Shown piece after piece: positions 37,218-59,843 of a stretch of 64,000 bases of DNA; position 1 is the first letter of the stretch, and each line of letters begins with the position of its first letter. The notes under the pieces were generated by a model, which saw only the letters and a program-made list of their open reading frames with translations, had not been told where the DNA came from and searched no databases. The translations under genes were made by a program, and so were the position numbers. Origin of the DNA: Collinsella aerofaciens (lineage in GTDB: Bacteria > Actinomycetota > Coriobacteriia > Coriobacteriales > Coriobacteriaceae); contig NZ_JADMWW010000008.1 in assembly GCF_015548375.1 (NCBI RefSeq), forward strand, positions 1 through 64,000, written 5' to 3'.

Positions 37218-39436
37218 AGCTGTGAATCGCAGCGATCTAAGAACCTTCGAAGCCATTAGGTGTGTCGGCTAATTCCCGCGCCTGTAAAGCAATTGCCCGA
37301 AATACGATACCTGCAAAACATGTACGCCCATGGCTTTGACTGCCTTGTGATATAAGTATCTGCTCGAAGTGCGGTGTCTGCGAAGCATAAGAGTGGGAAA
37401 GTCCATATTTATGCTTAGTGAGTAGTCTCTCGAAACGCCATACTTGCGAAGCCTGTGTGCGTGGATGCGAACAAAGTTTTGCGGTAAGTAGCTGCTCGAG
37501 GCGCGGTACCCACGAAGCAATATCCATCCTGAGAATGATGCAAAGTAGGGTAAGTAGCTGTCCGAAGCGCGGTACCTGCAAAGTTTTATGGACTCTTGGG
37601 TTTTTTGCCGGCCAGAGTAAGTAGCTGCCCGAAGTGCAGTCCCTGCGAAGTAGGCCTTATGTAGGCAGAATTAAGCGCGAAGGTAGGTAGCTGCTCGAAG
37701 CGCGATACCTGTGAAGCGTAAATCATTGCGCCATATGGCGGCTCTGTGGCAAGAAACTAGTCGAAGCGCGGTCCCTGCGAAGCCATCCTACGGTGGGAAC
37801 GTCGCAGCCGGATGGTAAGTAGCTGCTCGAAGCACGGTACCTACGAAGCAACATGTTGCAGCCGCCAATCGCTTGAAGACGGTAAGTGGCAGCTCGAAGC
37901 GCGGTACCTACGAAGCACGCACCACGTCCGCAGCCTTGACGTCACAGGTAAGTAGCAGCTCGAAGTGCGGTACCTACGAAGCAGAATACGACACGCGCCC
38001 CATAAACTCATGGGTAAGTAGCAGCTCGAAGCGCGGTACCTACGAAGCGTCTTGAAGACACCTTTGGTCGCATCCAAAGGTAAGTAGCTGCTCGAAGCGC
38101 GGTACCTACGAAGCGCTCCTTGGCGGCATACGCAGAACCAACCTGGTAAGTAGCAGCTCGAAGCGCGGTACCTACGAAGCACAAAAACCTGTACCTTTTT
38201 GTGCAACAAAGGTAAGTAGCTGCTCGAAGCGCGGTACCTACGAAGCAGCTATAGCTGATGGGGAGGGAGCGACAGAGGTAAGTAGCTGCTCGAAGCGCGG
38301 TACCTACGAAGCATCACTGGACGCGACGTCGACCTAGCCGAAGGTAAGTAGCTGCTCGAAGCGCGGTACCTACGAAGCGTGTATGTGTTACGGGGCGGGA
38401 GCTGCTCCGGTAAGTAGCTGCTCGAAGCGCGGTACCTACGAAGCCGGCAAGCGAGTGAAACGAGCGCGCAGCGGGGTAAGTAGCTGCTCGAAGCGCGGTA
38501 CCTACGAAGCAAGAGCCCGCGTTTGTCCTCAGACATGCCAGGTAAGTAGCTGCTCGAAGCGCGGTACCTACGAAGCACATACGTCCTGCAATGCCATAGG
38601 CATTCCGGTAAGTAGCTGCTCGAAGCGCGGTACCTACGAAGCCGTGAAACCGTTGGCGATTATGTAGCCGACGGTAAGTAGCTGCTCGAAGCGCGGTACC
38701 TACGAAGCCTCTTCCTTGGCCATAAAAATGGAGCCCTTGGTAAGTAGCTGCTCGAAGCGCGGTACCTACGAAGCACATACGTCCTGCAATGCCATAGGCA
38801 TTCCGGTAAGTAGCTGCTCGAAGCGCGGTACCTACGAAGCGTATCGAAGGTCATGCCAGAGGTCTGCTCGGGTAAGTAGCTGCTCGAAGCGCGGTACCTA
38901 CGAAGCGCCGCCGGCAAATGCCACCACGCAAAGGCGGGTAAGTAGCTGCTCGAAGCGCGGTACCTACGAAGCTCTATTCTTCAGACACCGCCCGCCGCGC
39001 CCGGTAAGTAGCTGCTCGAAGCGCGGTACCTACGAAGCCCATAATAGATGCGAGTCATGGCCAATTCAGGTAAGTAACTACTCGAAGCGCGGTACCTGCG
39101 AAGCAGGAACCCCCCCCCATCACAGTTTCCTCGGTGGTAAGTAACTACTCGAAGCGCGGTACCTGCGAAGCTTTTTCTTTTGAACTCACATGGACATACC
39201 TGGTAAGTAACTACTCGAAGCGCGGTACCTGCGAAGCTGGTCGGCATGGCAATCTCCGTTCGACGACGGTAAGTAACTACTCGAAGCGCGGTACCTGCGA
39301 AGCATCGGCTTCACCAGACCGTCGGCGGCGTCGGGTAAGTAACTACTCGAAGCGCGGTACCTGCGAAGCCGCTTTGCATGATTGATTTCAAATATTCGAA
39401 GGTAAGTAACTACTCGAAGCGCGGTACCTGCGAAGC
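37218..39436 (-). CRISPR. Type II-A CRISPR array, about 33 repeats with a decayed distal tail
   Basis: The 36-bp repeats begin, on the minus strand, GCTTCG(T/C)AGGTACCGCGC. They alternate with 30-31 bp spacers at a 66-bp period. Repeats from 37814 to 39069 are nearly identical. Those at 37284-37783 are progressively mutated but keep the 66-bp spacing, and a faint further copy lies at 37218-37253. The six repeats nearest the cas genes (39069-39436) share three substitutions. Decay at the low-coordinate end and csn2 on the other side place the leader at 39437 onward, with transcription on the minus strand. One spacer is duplicated (38577-38606 and 38775-38804). Confidence 0.96.
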
Positions 39437-39531
39437 CGAAGAATTGACATCGACTGGCAAGTCCGTATAAGAGCAGCTACTGAAGCTAAAAAGTTGATTA
39501 GAAGAAAGAAAAGGTTCCGACGATTTTGGGA
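39437..39531 (-). promoter_or_regulatory. Putative CRISPR leader and pre-crRNA promoter
   Basis: This A/T-rich sequence adjoins the first repeat. On the minus strand TTATAC (39470-39465) could be a -10 placing transcription about 20 nt before the first repeat; no clear -35 is seen. Spacer acquisition would occur at 39436/39437. Confidence 0.45.
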
Positions 39532-40676: not shown

Positions 40677-41564
40677 TCAAGGCGTTCCTGGCGCCGAGAT
40701 CTCATCTGCATCGCCAGCCCCCTCCATCACACGAAGGCATCCGTCGACCCATAGGTCGATGGCGTCCGACACCCGGTAGCTCCCATGGCCATAGGGAATC
40801 CTGTCCGCGAGTGTGGACGCAAGGAGCCTTTTCACAGAAGGCGAGAGATCGCGGGGGCGCTCCAGCTCGACTTTCCGATCGACCAGGGGCCTGAACGGCT
40901 CCACGAGGTCGCAGGCGAGGTTGTAGGGGTTCGTCTTGGAGTGGTGGTGGATTCCCACCTGGTTGAGGTAGCCCTTCGCCGCGATCCTGCACGCTGTATG
41001 CGAGAGCAGGATGGAATAACCGTAGTCGAGGGCGCTATTGGTTGCATCCGCGTGCGGTACCCGCACGAAACCGTCGCCGAACAGCGCTTTGAAATAGCGG
41101 CGCGCACCCGCGGCCTCGCGCCCGGTCGAGTCGCCGGCGCGGACCTCTCCCGCATAGGATGCAAGCAGCTCTGCCTCCAGGTCGTGGCCTGATCCTTCGA
41201 GGACAGAGGCCTGGTTTTCCAGCTTGCACTCGATGATCCTCTTCCACAGCATCTTGCGCGGCCAGGCGCCCCAGGACATCTGTGAGAGGACTTTGCCGTT
41301 CGTATCGATCGTCGCTGCCGTTAGCGGCATCAGGATTGATGCCGGCATATGCCGGCTATCGGTGAAAATGACGCTGCAGCCCCTTGCCGCGAGCTCATCG
41401 AGCAGGTAGGTCGATATGAACGCGGCCTTCCCGTCGACAACGATGCAGTCGAGCTCGTCGGCGCGCAAAAGGACGGGCCGGGGGTCGCCGTCACGGTGAA
41501 CGGCGACCCATCCCGCCTCATAGCGCAGTTTCCGGGCGTTCTCCAAAAAGAGTGTCTTACCCAA
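40677..41564 (-). CDS. cas1: Cas1 integrase
   Basis: A 295-residue Cas1 of type II. The metal-binding residues are visible: Glu in 'GREAAGARRYF', His in 'GIHHHSKTNPYN' and Glu in 'DLVEPFRPLVD'. The best start is a TTG at 41564 that overlaps the cas9 stop by 8 bp, because the protein then begins at the family's usual N-terminus; an upstream TTG at 41606 would add 14 residues. Confidence 0.95.
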   Translation of the reverse strand: MGKTLFLENARKLRYEAGWVAVHRDGDPRPVLLRADELDCIVVDGKAAFISTYLLDELAARGCSVIFTDSRHMPASILMPLTAATIDTNGKVLSQMSWGAWPRKMLWKRIIECKLENQASVLEGSGHDLEAELLASYAGEVRAGDSTGREAAGARRYFKALFGDGFVRVPHADATNSALDYGYSILLSHTACRIAAKGYLNQVGIHHHSKTNPYNLACDLVEPFRPLVDRKVELERPRDLSPSVKRLLASTLADRIPYGHGSYRVSDAIDLWVDGCLRVMEGAGDADEISAPGTP

Positions 41565-44500
41565 GGGTGGATACCCTCTCGTGGAGGCCCGCCGCCGAAA
41601 TGTCAACGATAGCGAAACCGGCCTTGGGGTCGTTGATGATCTTATCGAAGGTCATCGAGAGCGTACCCGCGAACGCGCTGCCGCCGAGGGGCCTCACGTC
41701 GGCGGTGCCCCTGATTCCCGAGAGGAGCTCCACGACCTGGACCTCGGACTCCGCTACCGCGCGGACGGTCTTAGCGAGATCGTCCGCTTCCGTATCGGCG
41801 AACACCTCCTCCGGCGTCTTCAGGGCACCCAGCTTGAGCACCTTGGAGACGCGGGGGAAGTTTGCCGGAGCGAGCGCGAGAAGGCGTGCCCACAGCCGGC
41901 AGAGAACCTTGGCATCGGATTCAAGATCACGCCTGGGGCTCGGCTGCTCGCCGTCGACCATGCGCTCGACGATCCTGAGCAGTCGGGTGTCGGCTGCGTC
42001 GAGGGCGAGCTGGCGCACGGGGCCGGCGGTCTTCAGCCCCTTGACCCTGAAGCGCTCCCCATATGCCTCGTACACTGTTTCCTTAAGGATCCTGTCGCGC
42101 ACGACGCGGACGAATCTCTCACCGGATTCACGGCACAGCGAGCGCGCATAGAGCTCGGTGAGCGAATCGGTCGCCTTGGATGCGATGGAGGTGGGCACGG
42201 GGGCGAACCTGAACAGGTTTCCCTTCTTGCCCTCGGTCTCGTAGATCATGAAATAGGCGAACGTCTGGGCTGAGTAGCCGCCGAACAGGGCAGCATCACG
42301 GTCGCCCTTCACGGGGATGAGCTTCGTCTTGGAGTCGCGCGGGGAGTAGACGGTCTGCTTCCAGAAGGCGCCGCCTTCCTCGTAGGGGGCAAACGTCACG
42401 CGCAGGTTCTTCCAGGAGCAGGCGCGGATGAGCCTCTCGCGCTCGAAATCGGAATCCCACAGCACTTCGGCCGTGTCATAGTCCACGAGGTCGCGGAAGA
42501 ACCCGCCTGAGAAGAAGTCGAGCTCGGAGTCCGCCCCGCCCCGGCGCTCCTGTGCCTCGATATCGCGCATGGTGCGCTCGTAGAAGGCCCTGTTGTTCGA
42601 CCATATGGGCGCCCTCGTCTCGATGAACCTGCCGGTCGTGAGGGCGATGAGGGCATCGTGGGCGTGGTAGTAGCGATTTGCTTTTCGGCTTCTCGGGATT
42701 CCCGCGCGCCTCCTGACCGAGCTGGCGACCCCGGCCTTCACCGGCACGACCTTGACGCCCGTGTAGGTTGCCTCGAGGACCGCGGCGATGAGCTTGCACT
42801 CCTGGCTCGTCTCGGTCAGCTGGCGCCCGACGATCGACTTCAGCATTCTCTCGGAGATCTGCGTCCTCATGAGCGTATTGAGTTTGCGCTCGGTCATGAG
42901 GCCCGCGCGGCGAAGGTGCATCCAGAAAGGCGCCATCTTCCTCTGCACGTGTTGGGGCACGAGGATCGAGTCCTTCTTATCAAGGCTCTCGGCGTACAGG
43001 ACCAATGCCTTGTTGTCGAGCGATTCGTCCCTGCGCACCGACCTGGGCAGGATACGGTCGACGCAGTAGTCGACCGACGCGATGCGCGCGATATCGATGG
43101 GCTTGCCGGAGTAGAGGCTCTTTCCCGCCTGTCGGAAATAGAGGTACAGGCGCTCGTTGATCTCCTTCTCGTCGAACATCCCCAGCTCGCGCAGGAGCCT
43201 GGCGGCATCCAGGTCGCGGCGCGCGTCCTCGTCGAGCGCCTTCAGCGCGGCCTCGATCTCCTGGGCGCGGCTCCGCGACCGCTTGCCCTTCAGCTGTTTC
43301 GAGGCGGTCCTCGTGACCTCGACGTAGACCTTTGCCGGGGCGCATCCAGCCACCGAAGCCATATCCTCGATAACCTTCATGGCCTGCGAGACGCCGCGAC
43401 GAAGCGCGGGGGACCCGGGCAGGGCGTCGATGCCGAGCTCACCGGCCTTTTCCAGCGCGGTGGCGTTGACCTCGTCAATCCTCGTGCGGAAGCCGAGCTC
43501 GGTGTCGCTCAGGGCCTGCATCAGGTTCATGGACGTGCCGCGGAACCTGCCGTAGGGCGCGCCCTGCTCGAGAACGTCCATGATACACATGTCGCCGCGC
43601 GCGGTGTCTACCCACACACCGGTGAGCAGGCGCTCGGAGAGCTGGCCCCAGCCCTTGAGGCGCTTCGCGCAAAAGGCCTCGATAGCGCCCTCGTCAAGGA
43701 TATCCCCGTATTCCTTGGCGACCTTGCGCTTCAGGATGGAGCGCTCCTCGAACACGGTGTTCCACAGGATGATGTCCTCTGCCATGGACTTCTGGGCGGC
43801 CGTCAAGGACTTCACGCCGAGAAGGCCTGCAATCCAGGCCGAGACGGACAGGCGCGACGTCATCCTTTTGGCATCGGATACGCCCTTGACGTGCGGGTGC
43901 GCCATCGTGAAGTCGCGCGAGAGGATGTTCGCGATTCGGCTGAGGGTCATGACCGAGCCGTCCGATGCGGCCTCGACCACGGCCGCCCTCATCGCCGCAT
44001 CGAGCGGCAGCCAGTCCTGGCCGTCCTCGGTGTAGCGGATGCCCGCCAGCTCGTTCAGGAACCGGAAGCGCTCGTAGATGAGGGAGTTCGCCGGGAGCAC
44101 GTCCTCATCGACCAGGTAGGTGCACTTGCCCGTCATGCGCCGGATGAATGCCTCTGCGGCCGCATCGGTGTCGATATGCTCCTCGTAGTTCCAGGGTGTG
44201 ACGAAGGCGCGCTCATGGCCGGGAAGACGGCGCGACCACGAGAACCTCGCCTTGCCGTGGGCGTCCACGGGCGCGGCCGAGGAGTCCAGGGGCCCTACGT
44301 AGTAGGGGATCCTCGAGGTCAGCACCTTCAGGATATGGGGGCCTGCGTCCTTTAGCCAGGGGTAGAAGCCGCCCTGCGCGTCGATGATGCGGCCCACGAC
44401 CTCCGCATGGAGCTGGTACGGGATAGCACTGTTGTCCGTGGTGTGGATACGGCGAAGGAACCTGTGCTCTCCGAGAGCGGCGACCATATCGATGTAGGCC

Positions 44501-45750
44501 GGGTCCTTTGCGGCATCCGTTCCCTTGAAGAGCCTCTCAACCCTCTTCTTGAACTCCTCATAGGGAATCACGTTGAGGTCGTAGGCCGTATAGCCCATAT
44601 TCCTCTTGGCGCCGTCTAGCTTCTTCACGAGCACCTTGTCGTACCCCCTGCGGCCGGACCTTTTCGGGCCGCCGAAGAAGTCCCTGTAGAGGGCAAGCCC
44701 GTCCTCGTCGGGACCTTCCTCGGAATCAGCATGGGCGATGTATTTCAGTGCGAGGTCCTTCAGGGTGCGCAGCTGGCGCCCGTACACCTCGTACTGGGCC
44801 ACCTGGTTGTGCGAGAGGGTCTTTCCGGGTGCAAACGAGAGAAGGCCCTGTAGGCGCCACGCGGAGTAGAGGCCCCGTGCGGCCTCGATGGTCGGGGCGA
44901 GTCTGTCGGGGCAGTTGGCGAGGAACTCATCGAGCGCATCGGCGTCGGATACGGATATCTTTCCGATCTGCTCGCCCTCGAGTGCGAAGGCGTCCATATT
45001 CGCCTTGTAGCCGGCGACGAGGTCGCCCAGCGCCTTTGCCTGCGCGCGGGCGATCTTGGCGTCGATATCGTCGCCTGTCACCGATACGGCGCCGGACACG
45101 GCCTTTTGGAGCTCTCGGGCAGTCCAGGAGCCGCCCATACCGCCAAGCGCGCTGCCGTCGAGCTCGATAGCCTCGCCACAGGCCTCCCCCAGGGCGTCGA
45201 GCTCGCGCACGAGGGCCTCGACCTGGGCGGAGGGGTCTGAGTTGTCGGACGTCACGTCGTTGCCCTCCATGAGGAAGTGTCCGCGGCGCACGACGTGGTT
45301 GGCGATGGCCCAGAAGACGAGCCTGGGGTCTCGGGGGCCGTCTGATTCCATGAGGTCGACGTCGAGGTGCGCGAGCGTGGGATAGCCGTCAAGAAGCCCC
45401 TGCCAGGCGGCAGCCGCGGGATCTGCCGCGATATCGTCGCGCATGAGTTTGTAGGACATCCTGCGCCTGACGAAGAAATCCGGGTCTGTGGGAGCGATCG
45501 CCGGCGCGAACACGCGCTCCATCTCACGCTCCCTGCCGCGGGCGCGCTGGAGCCTGCGCCTCGCCGTGCGCGGCATACGGGCCTCGGAGGCGTGGAGCGC
45601 CTCCTTGAAGCAGCGTGCGCCCATCACGGGCTGGCCCTTATGGTAGAGGACCTCCCCGTACTCGTCTGTGGCCACGAACCCGACGCTCGTACCGTCGAGG
45701 TCGATTCCGGCATACCACGGACCGTTGATATTTTTAAGTTTCCTGGCCAT
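41557..45750 (-). CDS. cas9: Cas9, RuvC intact, HNH catalytic residues substituted
   Basis: A 1397-residue type II-A effector. RuvC-I has D17 ('GIDLDGTSVGF'), an Arg-rich bridge helix follows, RuvC-II has E811 ('VYVEVTRT') and RuvC-III has H1029/D1032 ('YYHAHDAL'), so the non-target-strand nuclease looks intact. In the HNH domain ('YLYFRQAGKSLYSGKPIDI', then 'CVDRILPRSVRRDESLDNKAL') the SpCas9 Asp839 equivalent is D898. His840 is replaced by Arg899 (codon CGT, 43056-43054) and the Asn863 position falls on Ser922. The HNH nuclease should therefore be inactive, leaving a nickase or a binding protein. AGGAG lies about 6 nt before the ATG at 45750. The tracrRNA diverges from just upstream. Confidence 0.95.
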   Translation of the reverse strand: MARKLKNINGPWYAGIDLDGTSVGFVATDEYGEVLYHKGQPVMGARCFKEALHASEARMPRTARRRLQRARGREREMERVFAPAIAPTDPDFFVRRRMSYKLMRDDIAADPAAAAWQGLLDGYPTLAHLDVDLMESDGPRDPRLVFWAIANHVVRRGHFLMEGNDVTSDNSDPSAQVEALVRELDALGEACGEAIELDGSALGGMGGSWTARELQKAVSGAVSVTGDDIDAKIARAQAKALGDLVAGYKANMDAFALEGEQIGKISVSDADALDEFLANCPDRLAPTIEAARGLYSAWRLQGLLSFAPGKTLSHNQVAQYEVYGRQLRTLKDLALKYIAHADSEEGPDEDGLALYRDFFGGPKRSGRRGYDKVLVKKLDGAKRNMGYTAYDLNVIPYEEFKKRVERLFKGTDAAKDPAYIDMVAALGEHRFLRRIHTTDNSAIPYQLHAEVVGRIIDAQGGFYPWLKDAGPHILKVLTSRIPYYVGPLDSSAAPVDAHGKARFSWSRRLPGHERAFVTPWNYEEHIDTDAAAEAFIRRMTGKCTYLVDEDVLPANSLIYERFRFLNELAGIRYTEDGQDWLPLDAAMRAAVVEAASDGSVMTLSRIANILSRDFTMAHPHVKGVSDAKRMTSRLSVSAWIAGLLGVKSLTAAQKSMAEDIILWNTVFEERSILKRKVAKEYGDILDEGAIEAFCAKRLKGWGQLSERLLTGVWVDTARGDMCIMDVLEQGAPYGRFRGTSMNLMQALSDTELGFRTRIDEVNATALEKAGELGIDALPGSPALRRGVSQAMKVIEDMASVAGCAPAKVYVEVTRTASKQLKGKRSRSRAQEIEAALKALDEDARRDLDAARLLRELGMFDEKEINERLYLYFRQAGKSLYSGKPIDIARIASVDYCVDRILPRSVRRDESLDNKALVLYAESLDKKDSILVPQHVQRKMAPFWMHLRRAGLMTERKLNTLMRTQISERMLKSIVGRQLTETSQECKLIAAVLEATYTGVKVVPVKAGVASSVRRRAGIPRSRKANRYYHAHDALIALTTGRFIETRAPIWSNNRAFYERTMRDIEAQERRGGADSELDFFSGGFFRDLVDYDTAEVLWDSDFERERLIRACSWKNLRVTFAPYEEGGAFWKQTVYSPRDSKTKLIPVKGDRDAALFGGYSAQTFAYFMIYETEGKKGNLFRFAPVPTSIASKATDSLTELYARSLCRESGERFVRVVRDRILKETVYEAYGERFRVKGLKTAGPVRQLALDAADTRLLRIVERMVDGEQPSPRRDLESDAKVLCRLWARLLALAPANFPRVSKVLKLGALKTPEEVFADTEADDLAKTVRAVAESEVQVVELLSGIRGTADVRPLGGSAFAGTLSMTFDKIINDPKAGFAIVDISAAGLHERVSTLG

Positions 45751-52425: not shown

Positions 52426-55267
52426 CTATTTCGAGCTGACGACGCCGTCGGCTTGAGCCAAAGACCACTTGATGTACAGGACGGTATCGCGCTTAGCCGT
52501 AATCGAGCCGGTCGATTCGCCCTGCTGGCTCGCTGAAGTCAGCCAGCACATCGGGACATACCGGCGCCAGGTGCCGTCGGATGTCTTCCGGTAGACGTCT
52601 TCGGGTTTTGCCGGGGCGACGCGCTCGCCCCAGTAGACGGCCTTGTGGGCGCGCCCGTCGTCGACGATGGCCGGCAGCGCGACCCCCCCCGAGGGAATGG
52701 GACTCACGTCCCTTGCCGTAATCGGGGAGTTCTAGGGCACCAGCAACCTCCGGGGCGCCGTCGCTCGCGGCGGTGCGGTACACGGCCCCCTCCTCGGGAT
52801 GAAGCGAGCCTTCCGCATATTCGATCCTTACCGTGCAGCGATTGCGGCCGTAAAGGTGGAGTTCCTCGCCTGCCTTGAGCTCCGATCCCCCATAGGGCCT
52901 CGTCAGCCCCGTATCGGAAAACCAGCCCGTAAAGCCCGTGCTCTGCTCCTCGCCGAAATGGTCATTCAGGTTGCATCGGGTTTTCAGCGCGGCCGCGGTG
53001 GCCTCCGCGCTGGCCGCGTGGTGGCCGGGTTTGGCCGTTTCCGTGAAGACGACCGATTCGTCATCCACTCCGTCGGCGTGATAGACGACCTTTACCCCTG
53101 CGATATGGATGGGCCCGGCGCTTACGAATCCATGGAACCGGTGAACGAGCGGTGAGTCATGGTTGGCCCCCTTGCGCAGTTCAGTCGGAAATGCCTGCAT
53201 GACGACACAGGAGAGATAGCGGTCCTGCATATCGGCGAATTCGTCTTCCGTGATGTTTAGAGTCCCACCGTCACGCGAGAAATCCCGCAATACCACGGCT
53301 CCTTCCGGTTTTGGGATCAAATCGACTTGGACGCACCTCAGGTCATTCGATGCGGTGAGGTCGCCTACCCCATCAACTGTCGGCGCATCGAGTCCCGTTC
53401 CCGAAACGTAGCCCGCCGTCCAGCCGACGTTCGAGTTGAACGCCCTTACCTCGAGGTCGAAATGCAGCGAGACGTCACCGGTGAGCCAGACCTTGATGGC
53501 GCTCCAGCGCAGGGACCTCCCTCCCTCGCCCACTTGCTCCCCGTCGGCCGCGGCATCGCTCCACCCGCCGCCCTTGGCGAGCATGCTGTAGCGGATCGAT
53601 CCTTGCCATGGCGAGCCCTCGAGGCGAAGCGAGAGCGCCTCTATGCACATCAGCTCGGACATATTCATGCCGACATGGCGGTATGCGGCGCATTCGGGCA
53701 TGTCGCCGAAGTTCGACAGGTGGCATGTTCCGATAATGGAGGCGCCTGAGCAGCCGTCGGACACCTCGTCGGTTTCCGATTGGTACCAGCGATAGGAGAA
53801 GTGGGTCGGGGCATTGCCCCCGTTGCCCTTTTTGACGTCCGACCAGTTCCTGCACGGGCTGCATGTGAGAAGCGGGTCCGAGCAGGCCACGGGCTCCACG
53901 CGAGTCAGCTCGGGCTTGCCGTCGTTCAGCGTGAGCGAGCCTGTGAACTGCACCTCCTTCACGACCCATGCCGAAGCGCGGTCGCCCGCCACCCCATCCT
54001 TGTAGCCGCTATGGAAGAGGTTTAGCTTCGAAGGCTTCGCGACGGTCGCATTCGGCCTGTTCACGCATAGGCCCGAGGCATCGCTTATGATGGCCATCGC
54101 GCCGTCGCCGTACAGGGCACCCCCCTCGGAAAACCTCTTCGTTACCCACCATGCGCTGGCCCTCGATTGGACGCCCGCGCTGTTGATTTGAAAGGGCTGG
54201 GTGCAGTTGGTATGGCTGAATTCCTTTCCGTCCCATGGCCCGCCCCATGAGGCGATCACCGCGCGGGATCCATCGGCCACATGCGCCGGTCGCATGGTCG
54301 TGAGAAAGCCCGGGACGGGTCCCCAGTCGGATTGATAGGTGTCATCGCGGACTTTGGAGAATTCGGTGAGATACAGCTGGTTGAAATTACCGCCATATGC
54401 CTGCTGATAGATATCCGTCGCATCGGTAATCGAGGCGTCACGCACGTCCCAGTTGAGCGTGTCGTCGTCCGCGGCGTGGATGCGGCACACGATGCCCTGG
54501 ATATCCTCCGTCGTGAGGTAGGTATGCTCCACGGTGGATGATATCCATCCCGTCTGGGAGTGCAGGGCGTCGACGTTCTCGTCATGTGAGACGCCCTCGA
54601 CGTAGATGTTGAAGATGTTCAGGTCCGCGGCCCACCTATGGGTCACGTCTCTCGATGTTCGCCTGTACCACTTTCCCGTGTCATGGTACTGGTAGTGCTT
54701 CCATCCGGTATCGTGTCGGCCGGTGCCGACCCCAAGCTCCTCGTTGGTAAGGTTGCCATCGAAGGTGACGATATTGTTCTCCTGCTCGTCCTCCTTGATT
54801 GCTCCGAGGTTGTCATGCTCCCACGCGAACCATAGGCGGTGGCCCCTGGGGTTGTAGTTGTCGTCCCCGCAGGCGGTCAACGGGTAGAAGGAGAGGTGGA
54901 ACCACAGCTCGTTCTCGTAGTCGCATTCAACCTGGAGGTTCAGGGCGTAACGAAGGATCTGGACGTAGGCGTAGCGGAAGGCGTACCACTCGGTCCATCC
55001 GTTTGCCCAGCCCATGCATTGGTTTATGGGGTTTGACCTGCCCCTACAGCAGTTGATCTTGCCGTTGAGCATCCCATAGGCGTCCCAGGCCCCCTGGCCG
55101 ATTCCCGCATTTTGCCCCCAATAGTCCCACCCGAGCGCCGTGTCGGCGCCGAGTAGGCCGAGTCCTGCCGCGACCGCCAGGGCCGCGAACAGTCCTCGTC
55201 TCGTAATGGGAGTATCCCCTAAGGATGAGCCTTCGCTCTTCCCCTCATCGTGCTTGTCGAGTCTCAT
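52426..55267 (-). CDS. Giant Tat-exported surface protein 1, frame-shifted at a G8 tract
   Basis: About 945 residues if full length. The N-terminus has a Tat signal ('ITRRGLFAALAVAAGLGLLG', about 22-42). The mature part is Cys- and Trp-rich without known domains until the C-terminus, which resembles Listeria-Bacteroides/InlB-type repeats ('GFTGWF', 'LYGRNRC'). The frame from 55267 is shifted at the G8 tract (52690-52683). It then runs to 52493 with aberrant Arg-rich sequence, while the correct end, matching the paralogue, continues in another frame to 52426. Seven or ten G residues would restore it. No LPXTG motif is visible. GGGAGGT precedes ATG 55267. Confidence 0.75.
52683..52690 (-). repeat. 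G8 homopolymer in surface protein 1
   Basis: Eight C on the plus strand (G on the coding strand) lie exactly where the frame of the gene is lost. This is the kind of tract that changes length by slipped-strand pairing. Confidence 0.8.
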
Positions 55268-55337
55268 CTACGCACACCTCCCGTCAGGGACATGCGCGGG
55301 CTCGGGAAGGAGGCCGCGCCTCCGTCCCGAGCCGTCG

Positions 55338-58244
55338 TTAGTTCTTTGCCGTGGCGACGCCGTCCGACTCCGCATACGCCCACAGGGCGTAGACGGTCGT
55401 GTCGCGTTCCATCTTGATTGTCGAGAGAGGCGTCCCCCCCCCCGCCCTGTCGGGCATGTAGCCCTTGAAGACGAGGCGGCGCCACGTTCCGTCCTCGCGC
55501 TTGGCGAAGACGTCCTCGTAGCCGGCGAGCGTCACGGACTCGCCGCGGTAAAAGGCGGTATGCCCCACGCCGCCATCGCCGATTGCCGGCAGGTCGATCT
55601 TATCGAGCCTGTGCCTCTCGGCAAGACCGGTGAAATCGGGCAGCCCGAGCGCACCGTCAACCGCATCCGCGCCATCGCTCGGCTTTCTGCGGTAGACGGT
55701 CCCGGCGTCGGGCTCAACCGATCCTTCCGCGTACTCGATGCGCAGCGTGCAGCGGTTGCGCCCGTATAGCTTCAGTGCGCCCTTCCTGGGAATCTCGAGG
55801 GAGCCGGCTGGATCGCGCAGGGCGGCGTCCTTGAACCAGCCCGTGAATCCGGTGGCCGCGTCCTCGCCGTAGTGTGCATAGAGGTTGCAGGGGTTTTTCC
55901 CGGCAGCCTCCAGCGCGGCCACGATGGGCGCGTATCGATCGCCGGGATGGACATTCTTATCGACATATACTCGATGACCGTCATCGATGCCGTCCGCATA
56001 GTACTCGACGCTTGCCGACTCGATGAGGCAGGGCTTGGATATGACGGTGCCGCGATAGCGGTCCGTCCATATGCGGTCGGTGTTCCTGGAAGGAAGGCGA
56101 AGGGCCAACATGGCGGCTGCGTATAGGCACCCGGAACCGAACTCCTCGGTCACCTTGACGTTCTCCTCGGCGCTGAACTCCCGCACCACCCGCGCGCCCG
56201 TCGGCTTGCGGATAAGGTGGACGTTCATGCCCGAGATCTTGGTATCGGAGCTCCCGTCCGGCTCGGGACCGCATGCCGGTGCCGTCTCGAGCGTCAAGGG
56301 CTCGTCTTTTGAGTTGTGGACGTACACCGGGTCGCTCCACGCGCAGGTGCCGCCGAGCAGCTTGGTCCTGACCACGAGGTCGTACTCGTCTGCGATGTCC
56401 CCGGTCAGCCACACCTTAACGCGGCTGATTATCTCGGTATCATAGTCCCCATTCGAGCACACCTTGGACCCGTCGGCGCCCTCATCCCATTCGCCGCCGG
56501 TGAAGCGCTGTGCCGCATAGTGAATCGATCCCTTGAATTTCGAATCCTGAAGACGCATCTCGAGGCTGAAGATGGAATGTCCCCCATGGGGCCAACCGAT
56601 ATGGTGGTGCGAGTAGGCCTCGGTCTGCTGGCCTCCCCATGTCGCGACTCGGCAGGATGCCATGATCGCGGTGTCATCGCTTGCGACCGCCTCCTCCGAG
56701 TCCGTCATGTACAGACGGAAAATCGGGTAGACGGGCAGTTCGCTCTCGTTTTTTGCCCCCAGGACATATCCCGCCGGCTTGATGCTCTTAGATTCGTCCT
56801 TGAACTTGTTGTGCCACCCCAGAATCTTCAGGCTGTCGCCGACCTGGGCCTCGTCCTTGGATAGCCCGACGTCGCCGTGGCAGACGACTTCCTCGAGAAT
56901 CCATTGGGCGTTGACCTGGGTTGCCCAGAGTCCCGGGCACGCCGGATTGGACACGGCGACGCAGGTGCTGCTGTCATCCCGAGTAACCCCCCAGGTGTCG
57001 AGCCTCTGCCCGTCCGCATCGGAGGTGATGAACCAGCATTTGTGGTCCGTCTCGTTCGTGACAGCGGGCTCATGGTGGACCCACCAGGAATTCGTGAGGT
57101 TAGTCGATTCGGGGTTACGCCAGATTTTTGCGTAACCCCGCTCCATGGTGGGAGAGGTGTGGCCATAGTTATCCAGGCCTCGATCGAGACCGGGGCCGAT
57201 CATGTTCGCGATGCAGAAAGTGAAGCATCCCAGCCCATCGGATTTATTCGGCCAGAACATCCAGTTCTGATTGACCCCGTCATAGTCATGGTAGAGGCAG
57301 GTGCCGCGACCGTTCTCGTAGCGAGCGACGGGGACATTGTTCTCGTAATAGCCCTGGACGAGGTCGACCCTCAGGTTCGGTGCGGTGACGGGGATGATCT
57401 TGAAGATGCCGCCCATGAGCGACATGTCGTTGTCGATATATATCTTGTCGGTCTGGACGGACATGTCCCTATCCTTCGGAGCATTCTGCGAGGAGACGAT
57501 GGCCGATGAGGGCCTGACGTTGTTCTTCCAGCAATTGAAGATATCGATATGCGCATAGACGTTGTGGCCGGTCTTTGCCTGCCTGCGTCTCAGGAATGTC
57601 GACCATCCGGGACCCTCATAGAACCCGTGGTAGAGCCATCCGTAGGCATTCACATGGCGGTCCTCGCCCTCGGAGCCGTCGTTGATGAGGTTGCCGACGA
57701 AGTTGCCGACCGGCACGCCGTCGATATAGCACGTGCCCTTGTTGTCGTCGCCGTCATCGCGTCCCAGCCAATATCCCCTCCAGGGATTGCTCGCGCAGTA
57801 GGAGGTGCAGTAGTAGAACGGACGGAAAACGATGTGGTCATAGAGCTCGTCGGACCAATCGCACTCGAATACCATCGCGAAGGCGTAGCCAAGTCGGTGG
57901 CTGTAGTCATTGTAGATATTCCATAAGTCCCAGTTGTTCGCATAGCCGAACCAGCGATCGTTGACGCCACGGGTCCGATCCGGATGCGTCAGGTCACCGC
58001 TGTCCTTGCTTGGTCCGATATAGCCGGCTCCGGGCCCGAAGTCGACGGCTGCATATGCGAGCGCATCGCTCGCGCCCATCAGGCCGAGGCCGGCGGCGAT
58101 GGCGAGGGCCGCGAGGAAACCGCGACGCGAGACCGGTGTGAATAAGCCTGTATCAGATTTGCCGTCATTCAGCAGTGCGGCATCCCCGGCCAGTCGGGCA
58201 TCAGTTGACTTTTCCCCGTTAGCCCCTTTTTTCCAGGAACCCAT
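55338..58244 (-). CDS. Giant Tat-exported surface protein 2, intact
   Basis: A 968-residue paralogue of the 52426-55267 protein. The Tat signal 'SRRGFLAALAIAAGLGLMG' lies at about 38-57, followed by a Tyr/Trp/Cys-rich ectodomain. A C-terminal block of InlB-like repeats follows ('GFTGWFKDAALRD', 'VYALWAYAESDGV'). The start is placed at ATG 58244, which has GAGGGAG upstream and abuts the preceding stop. A G10 tract (55443-55434) encodes Gly-Gly-Gly near the end, and here the frame is intact. How it stays on the surface is unclear, since no sortase signal or terminal membrane segment is seen. Confidence 0.8.
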   Translation of the reverse strand: MGSWKKGANGEKSTDARLAGDAALLNDGKSDTGLFTPVSRRGFLAALAIAAGLGLMGASDALAYAAVDFGPGAGYIGPSKDSGDLTHPDRTRGVNDRWFGYANNWDLWNIYNDYSHRLGYAFAMVFECDWSDELYDHIVFRPFYYCTSYCASNPWRGYWLGRDDGDDNKGTCYIDGVPVGNFVGNLINDGSEGEDRHVNAYGWLYHGFYEGPGWSTFLRRRQAKTGHNVYAHIDIFNCWKNNVRPSSAIVSSQNAPKDRDMSVQTDKIYIDNDMSLMGGIFKIIPVTAPNLRVDLVQGYYENNVPVARYENGRGTCLYHDYDGVNQNWMFWPNKSDGLGCFTFCIANMIGPGLDRGLDNYGHTSPTMERGYAKIWRNPESTNLTNSWWVHHEPAVTNETDHKCWFITSDADGQRLDTWGVTRDDSSTCVAVSNPACPGLWATQVNAQWILEEVVCHGDVGLSKDEAQVGDSLKILGWHNKFKDESKSIKPAGYVLGAKNESELPVYPIFRLYMTDSEEAVASDDTAIMASCRVATWGGQQTEAYSHHHIGWPHGGHSIFSLEMRLQDSKFKGSIHYAAQRFTGGEWDEGADGSKVCSNGDYDTEIISRVKVWLTGDIADEYDLVVRTKLLGGTCAWSDPVYVHNSKDEPLTLETAPACGPEPDGSSDTKISGMNVHLIRKPTGARVVREFSAEENVKVTEEFGSGCLYAAAMLALRLPSRNTDRIWTDRYRGTVISKPCLIESASVEYYADGIDDGHRVYVDKNVHPGDRYAPIVAALEAAGKNPCNLYAHYGEDAATGFTGWFKDAALRDPAGSLEIPRKGALKLYGRNRCTLRIEYAEGSVEPDAGTVYRRKPSDGADAVDGALGLPDFTGLAERHRLDKIDLPAIGDGGVGHTAFYRGESVTLAGYEDVFAKREDGTWRRLVFKGYMPDRAGGGTPLSTIKMERDTTVYALWAYAESDGVATAKN
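55434..55443 (-). repeat. G10 homopolymer in surface protein 2
   Basis: Ten C on the plus strand, about 100 bp before the stop codon, at a place comparable to the G8 tract of the paralogue. The current length keeps the frame open. Confidence 0.8.
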
Positions 58245-58245
58245 C

Positions 58246-58629
58246 TCAGTACTCCCTCGATTTGACGGCGGATAGGCCGCAGCAGGCCAGAACGGCCAAA
58301 TAGACACCCGCATGGCACAGGTCGAGCCTCAGCACGGCGAGTGCGCAGGCCGCAAGGCCGAACACGGCGGTGAGCGCGTAGAATCGCCAGCCATCGACCT
58401 TGCGCGCTATGAGGGCGAAGATGAATATGGCCAAGGGGATCCAGATGCTCTCGATGGAGCCCCGCGTCAGATAGAAAAGGACGGCACGCCCGCCCATCGT
58501 GGGAGCTATGTTGACGATGATGGAATAAGCGGAGAAGGCACAGGAAGGCAGAAGGGCCGCTGAAGACACCAGCGCCGAGAGGGAGAGCTCCTCCTCATCC
58601 GGCCCCATAAGAGAAAGGTTATCAAACAC
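58246..58629 (-). CDS. Small polytopic membrane protein
   Basis: A 127-residue protein with about four hydrophobic segments (about 18-40, 58-74, 80-98 and 102-120). It starts at GTG 58629 behind GGAGG. It is the first gene of the operon with the two giant surface proteins and ends 1 bp before the next start, so it may help export or anchor them. No family is recognised. Confidence 0.7.
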   Translation of the reverse strand: MFDNLSLMGPDEEELSLSALVSSAALLPSCAFSAYSIIVNIAPTMGGRAVLFYLTRGSIESIWIPLAIFIFALIARKVDGWRFYALTAVFGLAACALAVLRLDLCHAGVYLAVLACCGLSAVKSREY

Positions 58630-58865: not shown

Positions 58866-59843
58866 ATGTTGAACAAATTATTTAATTTGCTGGCTAGGGC
58901 AAATAAAGATAGGAAGCCCGCCGATAGCCCACATGCGAATAGGTCCCTGAGCCCGGAGCTGCAGCGACATTTTGTCCAGAGCTATATCGATCAGGTCGGG
59001 TTCGAGCGCGAGAACTCCATCCCGAACGGCGTGTATGAGACGTCCATCGTCTCTTTCGTGTTCAACCATGAGAGGATCGAGGGCAGCTCGCTCACAGAAT
59101 GGCAGACGAGGACGATTTTCGAAACGAGGGACACCGTTCTCGCGGACTCTACCACCCCGGGAAATGTCCGCGAAACCGCAAACCACACGAAAATGTTCGA
59201 TTTCCTTTTCGATTCACTGGATAGGGAGCTCACTCCCGAACTCATAAAGGAGATCCACCTGCAACTCATGGACGGAGTGATGGACGTACCCGGCCGATGG
59301 AAGGTCTTGGGGAACGGAGTGGGAAGCGTCATCACGGCGCGACCGGAGGAGGTCCCCGCGCTGATCGACCGCCTTGTCTCCGAATATAACAAGTATCAGC
59401 CGTCCCTGGAGAATATCGTCAGGTTCCACGTGCGATTCGAGACAATCCACCCCTTCCCGGACGGTAACGGCAGGGTCGGAAGGGCAATTGCCTTTAGAGA
59501 GTGCCTACGCGCCGGCCTTGTTCCGTTTATCGTGACGGACGCGTCCAAGGATGCCTACTACGACTCTCTCGATGAGTTCAGGGCGGGAAAAGCCGACCCC
59601 CTTCTGACTTACGCTGAGGATATGCAGGTTGATTTCGCTTCCACGGTAGCACCAATTCTCACCGACCGGTCACTTTCGGATCAACTGCTCGGTGAGCTTG
59701 GCGTGGATAGGCCGAATTTCGATGAGGACGCCGGCTTCGTCGGCCCATCCACGAAATCGCTGAAGTCCAATCTTGCCGCCGCTAATATGAACAGAACTAC
59801 AACCAGTTCTGATAGTAAGACTGTCCGCACTCGTCGGATTTAG
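58866..59843 (+). CDS. Fic-domain AMP-transferase family protein
   Basis: A 325-residue Fic protein. The catalytic loop is 'HPFPDGNGRVGRA' (about 197-209), the complete HPFxDGNGRxxR motif, so transfer of AMP or a related group to a target hydroxyl is expected. An N-terminal 'IEGSSL' (about 76-81) matches the self-inhibitory helix region of class II Fic enzymes, though the usual Ser/Thr four residues before the Glu is His. Relatives include toxins and stress modulators. It stands alone with no antitoxin gene adjacent. Confidence 0.9.
   Translation: MLNKLFNLLARANKDRKPADSPHANRSLSPELQRHFVQSYIDQVGFERENSIPNGVYETSIVSFVFNHERIEGSSLTEWQTRTIFETRDTVLADSTTPGNVRETANHTKMFDFLFDSLDRELTPELIKEIHLQLMDGVMDVPGRWKVLGNGVGSVITARPEEVPALIDRLVSEYNKYQPSLENIVRFHVRFETIHPFPDGNGRVGRAIAFRECLRAGLVPFIVTDASKDAYYDSLDEFRAGKADPLLTYAEDMQVDFASTVAPILTDRSLSDQLLGELGVDRPNFDEDAGFVGPSTKSLKSNLAAANMNRTTTSSDSKTVRTRRI

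What the first reader, a model, noticed from the sequence alone, without database searches (positions are those of the whole stretch)
52683..55443. Paired poly-G tracts suggest phase-variable surface proteins, one copy frame-shifted now
Seen directly: two paralogous giant Tat proteins each have a G tract near the 3' end (G8 at 52690-52683, G10 at 55443-55434). The G10 gene is in frame. The G8 gene loses frame at the tract, yet the lost end, homologous to its paralogue, is intact in the other frame down to 52426. Seven or ten G would restore it. Slipped-strand variation of such tracts is a known route to on-off switching. A tract near the C-terminus would swap the last 60-90 residues rather than silence the gene, possibly altering anchoring or release.
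Basis: partly seen in the sequence, partly recalled or inferred. Interest (0 to 1): 0.75.

Follow-up and report, generated by a model that had tools for sequence, protein, structure and literature searches.

The report
Slippery G-run switch between sister proteins
Two neighbouring genes for secreted sister proteins in a gut bacterium (Collinsella) each carry a run of G bases that changes length between related genomes, so that each of the two genomes seen makes only one of the two proteins complete, and it is the opposite one; this looks like a random on/off switch of a kind known from pathogens, here in a common gut commensal.

Summary
Gene B (55338-58313, minus) has G10 and is in frame. Gene A (52493-55267) has G8 and loses its conserved tail, which is intact in another frame to 52426. 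The tracts are not "paired": they sit at non-homologous positions. The decisive evidence is a relative, Collinsella aerofaciens 1001095H_141210_H8 (L057), where the states are reversed: B has G9 and is frame-shifted, A has GGGGGGA and is complete. In about 5.8 kb of the two genes the only frame-changing length differences are at these two tracts. G tracts in other genes of the genus also differ in length (acyltransferase G10/G9/G7; Flp pilin G8-G10), and paralogues in a third genome carry G9 just after the start codon. I conclude slipped-strand "C-terminal" phase variation. When B is in frame its ribosomes stop before them; in both shifted frames they would read through and stop exactly at A's start codon. 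B's tract may therefore also switch A on (reciprocal expression). This is inferred, not shown. Within-population variation could not be tested.

The parts
55338..58313 (-). Gene B: Tat-signal secreted protein, 991 aa from the first ATG (true start may lie downstream, e.g. ATG at 58244), in frame
   Evidence: Tat signal TIGR01409 just under cut-off; 48% identical Eggerthella-family homologues
55434..55443 (-). G10 tract in gene B (G9 in L057, which shifts the frame)
55341..55433 (-). Conserved last 31 codons of B, lost when the tract shifts
55299..55333 (-). Intercistronic hairpin 1 (-30.5 kcal/mol on its own; no U run, so not a classical terminator)
55271..55298 (-). Intercistronic hairpin 2 (-18 kcal/mol); its 3' arm holds gene A's Shine-Dalgarno GGGAGGTG (55282-55275)
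55264..55270 (-). Stops of B's two shifted frames: TAG 55270-55268 directly before A's ATG (G9 frame) and TGA 55266-55264 overlapping it as ATGA (G8/G11 frame)
52493..55267 (-). Gene A as it reads now: 924 aa, paralogue of B, frame lost at G8
52683..52690 (-). G8 tract in gene A (GGGGGGA in L057, in frame)
52426..52682 (-). Conserved C-terminal tail of A, intact but out of frame here; in frame in L057

Best explanation
The two tracts are slipped-strand contingency sites in a tandem pair of paralogous, Tat-exported proteins. B's G10/G9 tract is the main switch. In one length class B ends with its conserved C-terminal module; in the other two the last strand of that module is replaced by 54-55 unrelated residues. 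A's G8 tract does the same, removing 84 conserved residues. Shown: tract lengths and frames in two genomes, reversed states, purifying selection on both genes and on the tails, and tract-length differences at other G tracts in the genus. Inferred: reversible switching inside a population, loss of function when the tail is lost, and a role in surface interactions. Also inferred: when B is shifted, its ribosomes run through the two hairpins between the genes and stop on A's start codon, unmasking A's ribosome-binding site, so one tract could make B and A alternate.
For: Tracts and frames as described. In L057 B has G9 and is shifted, A has GGGGGGA and is complete (946 aa). Over both genes the only other length difference is a 9-nt in-frame one, so both frame-changing indels fall in 18 bp of ~5.8 kb. 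dN/dS is ~0.12 for A and ~0.17 for B, and A's out-of-frame tail has 1 amino-acid change in 84, so the shifts are recent. Near-identical acyltransferase genes carry G10, G9 and G7. Flp pilin homologues carry G8-G10 after the start. Two related genes in G007 carry G9 before the Tat signal. Tract-free Eggerthella-family homologues keep the same full-length end. 17 tracts of 8 or more G in the genome: six G8, eight G9, two G10, one G13, not a geometric decline.
Against: No reads or clones of one strain were available, so within-population mixtures are not shown. Only two genomes hold the A-B pair. Tract lengths in draft assemblies can be wrong by one. G8 is at the short end of slippery tracts, and L057's A tract is interrupted (GGGGGGA), so A may be a one-off frameshift rather than a switch. 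No structure or function for the C-terminal module could be obtained.
Confidence: 0.7

Rival explanations
1. Assembly or base-calling error at homopolymers: both genes are simply intact in both genomes.
For: Draft genomes of 60 and ~130 contigs; errors concentrate in homopolymers, which would also place the indels exactly at the tracts.
Against: L057's A tract differs by a base substitution as well as by length; the name of L057's contig (NODE, coverage 48.8) points to short-read assembly, which rarely miscalls G8-G10; tract-length differences recur in other Collinsella genes at 99-100% identity.
Confidence: 0.12
2. Ordinary loss of function: A here and B in L057 are young pseudogenes that broke at the most mutable spot, without reversible switching.
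For: Each genome has exactly one broken copy; G8 is short; L057's intact A tract is interrupted by an A.
Against: No second lesion in either gene, low dN/dS including the tails, breaks only at tracts, and independent G tracts at a third position in paralogues of another genome.
Confidence: 0.15
3. The tracts act during expression: transcriptional slippage or ribosomal frameshifting on the G run lets one DNA sequence make both C-termini at once.
For: Long homopolymers can be slippery for polymerases and ribosomes; B's shifted tails run open for 54-55 codons.
Against: Length differs between genomes in DNA; the alternative tails are out-of-frame arginine-rich sequence that matches no homologue seen here.
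Confidence: 0.06

Closest known systems
C-terminal phase variation in Neisseria gonorrhoeae (PMC5320596) and Helicobacter canadensis (cited there)
   Same: Simple repeat near the 3' end of a coding sequence; lengths differ between strains; three frames give three C-termini, some reaching the next gene.
   Different: Here in the class Coriobacteriia, in two tandem paralogues with opposite states in two genomes; the shifted frames end on the next gene's start codon instead of fusing with it.
Bifidobacterium breve sortase-pilus G-tract switch (PMC9187656)
   Same: Actinobacterial gut commensal; G tract of similar length in the first gene of a surface locus, slipping during replication.
   Different: There the tract decides whether the pilus gene is made at all, and slippage was measured; here the tract is near the 3' end and slippage is inferred. 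The Flp pilin and G007 genes of this genus, with the tract near the start, resemble it more.
Streptococcus gallolyticus Pil1/Pil3 attenuation switch (PMC3894217)
   Same: Repeat-length change shifts the frame of an upstream ORF so that ribosomes reach and open a hairpin before the next gene.
   Different: There the upstream ORF is a short leader peptide and the hairpin an intrinsic terminator with a T run; here the upstream ORF is itself a large paralogous protein, and the second hairpin masks a ribosome-binding site. The effect on expression is untested here.

Membership tests
C-terminal phase-variable gene | Simple repeat near the 3' end of the coding sequence | tested here: met
   G10 31 codons before B's stop; G8 ~85 codons before A's native stop
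C-terminal phase-variable gene | Repeat length differs between related strains and changes the frame | tested here: met
   B G10 vs G9, A G8 vs GGGGGGA; each shifts the frame. The two genomes are different species representatives, not two isolates of one strain.
C-terminal phase-variable gene | Reversible length mixture inside a clonal population | not testable with these tools
   No reads available
Pil1-type translation-controlled attenuation | Repeat shifts an upstream ORF so that it ends past a hairpin | tested here: met
   Both shifted frames of B run through two hairpins and stop at A's ATG
Pil1-type translation-controlled attenuation | Hairpin is an intrinsic terminator with a T run | tested here: not met
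   No T run after hairpin 1 or 2; not found in the terminator scan
Pil1-type translation-controlled attenuation | Downstream expression rises when the upstream ORF is lengthened | not testable with these tools
   Needs a reporter or RNA/protein measurement
Sortase-anchored (LPXTG) surface protein | C-terminal LPXTG motif, hydrophobic stretch and positive tail | tested here: not met
   Read directly from both translations, including A's native tail
Tat-exported protein | Twin-arginine signal | tested here: inconclusive
   SRRGFLAALAIAAGLGL and TRRGLFAALAVAAGLGL by eye; TIGR01409 16.4 bits against cut-off 16.7 for B, no hit for A

The most novel reading that the evidence does not exclude
One G tract at the 3' end of gene B is a two-way toggle. 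In the in-frame length B is complete and its ribosomes stop 70 nt short of A, leaving A's ribosome-binding site locked in a hairpin. In both other length classes B loses its C-terminal strand, but its ribosomes melt the hairpins and re-initiate on A's start codon, so paralogue A is made instead: mutually exclusive expression of two sister proteins by slippage of a single homopolymer.
Probability: 0.33. Interest if true: 0.8.

Novelty: new variant of a known kind. Interest (0 to 1): 0.55.

Why it matters
Slipped-strand switches are well described in pathogens and in Bifidobacterium pili, but I found no open-access paper that reports them in Collinsella, a very common human gut genus. If the reciprocal reading holds, it is a very economical way to alternate two sister proteins with one mutable run of bases, and it is directly testable with a reporter. 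The wider list of G tracts in the genus (Flp pilins, acyltransferases) offers a ready set of candidate phase-variable genes.

Tried and rejected
Structure prediction of B (991 aa, mean pLDDT 27) and of the C-terminal module (240 aa, pLDDT 34) failed, probably because each alignment held only two sequences; no fold search was made on such models. PDB sequence searches gave only chance-level or very weak hits: a ricin-B-lectin-type match at E 0.0065 for one profile vanished with a broader one. Pfam gave only weak ChW and Listeria-Bacteroides repeat matches; that repeat is clear only in distant relatives. No relatives in plasmids, phages or viral contigs. A simulation alone does not make the open alternative frames remarkable (both open with probability 0.22); the stop/start coincidence against 25 other gene pairs is the better argument, and it is post hoc. 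That the two tracts descend from one ancestral tract was rejected: the positions are not homologous.

Full report
What is there. The window is contig C59 of a 2.46-Mb, 60-contig genome in the same genus as Collinsella aerofaciens 1001095H_141210_H8 (G016 and L057 hold the same 96%-identical locus, and one search found L057's two-gene stretch letter for letter in G016's). On the minus strand two paralogous genes follow each other: B (55338-58313) and A (start 55267). Their best stretch is 34% identical. Both begin with a twin-arginine-type signal and share a C-terminal module of about 240 residues. Neither has an LPXTG end. The module looks like a degenerate relative of Listeria-Bacteroides (InlB-type) repeats: three family members match PF09479 weakly, and distant Eggerthella-family relatives match it clearly.

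The tracts. B is in frame. A is not, and its conserved tail lies intact in another frame down to 52426. The tracts are at different places in the module: A's lies where B has residue ~904, B's at ~957. Tract-free homologues in another family show what both ends should look like; B's tract adds one residue to a variable loop. The tracts are therefore separate inventions, not a shared pair.

Reversed states in a relative. L057 carries the same gene pair. There B has nine G, so its frame is lost; A has GGGGGGA instead of eight G, so it is complete at 946 residues. Apart from one 9-nt in-frame difference near B's start, these are the only length differences in the two genes. Two frame-changing indels both falling in 18 bp of about 5,800 would happen by chance about once in 100,000 (my arithmetic, assuming uniform placement; homopolymers are of course mutable, which is the point). 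Outside the tracts both genes are under purifying selection, and A's unread tail differs from L057's at one of 84 residues, so the break here is recent or reversible.

The genus uses such tracts. Every one of 45 Collinsella-genus genomes has at least one exact G9. This genome has 17 tracts of eight or more: six G8, eight G9, two G10, one G13, a distribution that does not fall off as random runs would. In an acyltransferase gene that is 99-100% identical in three genomes the tract is G10, G9 and G7 followed by T. In Flp pilin homologues a tract of G8 to G10 follows the start codon. In genome G007 two tandem paralogues that share the C-terminal module, and that carry a SpaA domain, have G9 some 13 codons after the likely GTG start, before the Tat signal, where a shift would silence the gene. 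The same family has thus acquired G tracts at three different positions.

Between B and A. The 70 nt from B's stop to A's start fold into two tandem hairpins (96 nt folded: -51.3 kcal/mol, z -6.2; in L057 -50.4, z -4.5). The two substitutions between the genomes that fall in the stems both keep a pair. The second hairpin contains A's Shine-Dalgarno sequence. Among 68 gene starts taken from this genome's held sequence, A's leader is the most stably folded, and the cost of opening its ribosome-binding site is fifth highest. In the in-frame state B's ribosomes stop before the hairpins. In the G9 frame they stop at a TAG directly before A's ATG; in the G8/G11 frame they stop at the TGA of an ATGA overlap. 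Among 26 same-strand gene pairs with gaps of 30-150 nt, this is the only one in which both shifted frames end within 20 nt of the downstream start; the other 25 pairs do so in 2 of 50 frames. That is the usual geometry of translational coupling. It predicts that shifting B raises A. In the window (B complete, A masked and broken) and in L057 (B shifted, A complete) the states fit this, but two genomes cannot test it, and the coincidence was noticed after the fact.

Mechanism and confidence. Slipped-strand change of the C-terminus of B, and probably of A, is the best explanation (0.7). The added reciprocal control of A is a plausible hypothesis (about one in three). Assembly error (0.12), ordinary pseudogene formation (0.15) and expression-time slippage (0.06) are the rivals.

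Comparison with known systems. C-terminal phase variation is a named third class in Neisseria gonorrhoeae, including a case where one frame joins the next gene (PMC5320596). G-tract slippage in an actinobacterial gut commensal is shown for Bifidobacterium breve pili (PMC9187656). A repeat that lengthens an upstream ORF so that ribosomes open a hairpin is shown for S. gallolyticus pili (PMC3894217). What I found in none of these is the combination: the switching gene is itself one of two paralogues, and the shifted frames end on the other one's start codon. Searches of the open-access library for Collinsella with phase variation, and for Eggerthella, found no report of such tracts in these genera among the titles and abstracts listed; subscription papers were not searched.

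Noticed in passing
L042:2415-2423 (G000:C23), with homologues L092, L095-L097, L099, L102: Flp/Tad-type pilin gene with G9 about ten codons after its ATG; homologues in other Collinsella genomes carry G8, G9 or G10 at the same place, others have none: a likely on/off switch of pili.
   Followed up: partly
L047:4859-4868 (G000:C58), L083, L084: Acyltransferase_3 gene with G10 here, G9 in G023 and G7 followed by T in G031 at 99-100% identity; a second frame break further downstream suggests the gene may also be decaying.
   Followed up: partly
window 39110-39118 in array ~37280-39500: A repeat array of ~66-nt spacing near a Cas9 gene (41557-45750, minus) has a G9 tract inside what looks like a spacer, so the target may itself be a G-tract sequence.
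   Followed up: no
L058:8867-13942 (G007:C2): Tandem 98%-identical SpaA-domain genes with identical G9 tracts before the Tat signal; the gene upstream of them has a shortened middle and a repeated C-terminal end next to masked sequence, as if recombined.
   Followed up: partly
L037:5030-5042 (G000:C4): The longest G tract found in the genome, G13, near the end of an open frame with no Pfam match.
   Followed up: no
L046:4955-4989 (G000:C55): G8 and C9 tracts face each other as an inverted repeat about 30 nt after an ORF, a possible terminator with a slippery stem.
   Followed up: no
window 58866-59843: Fic/DOC-family gene divergently placed upstream of B.
   Followed up: no
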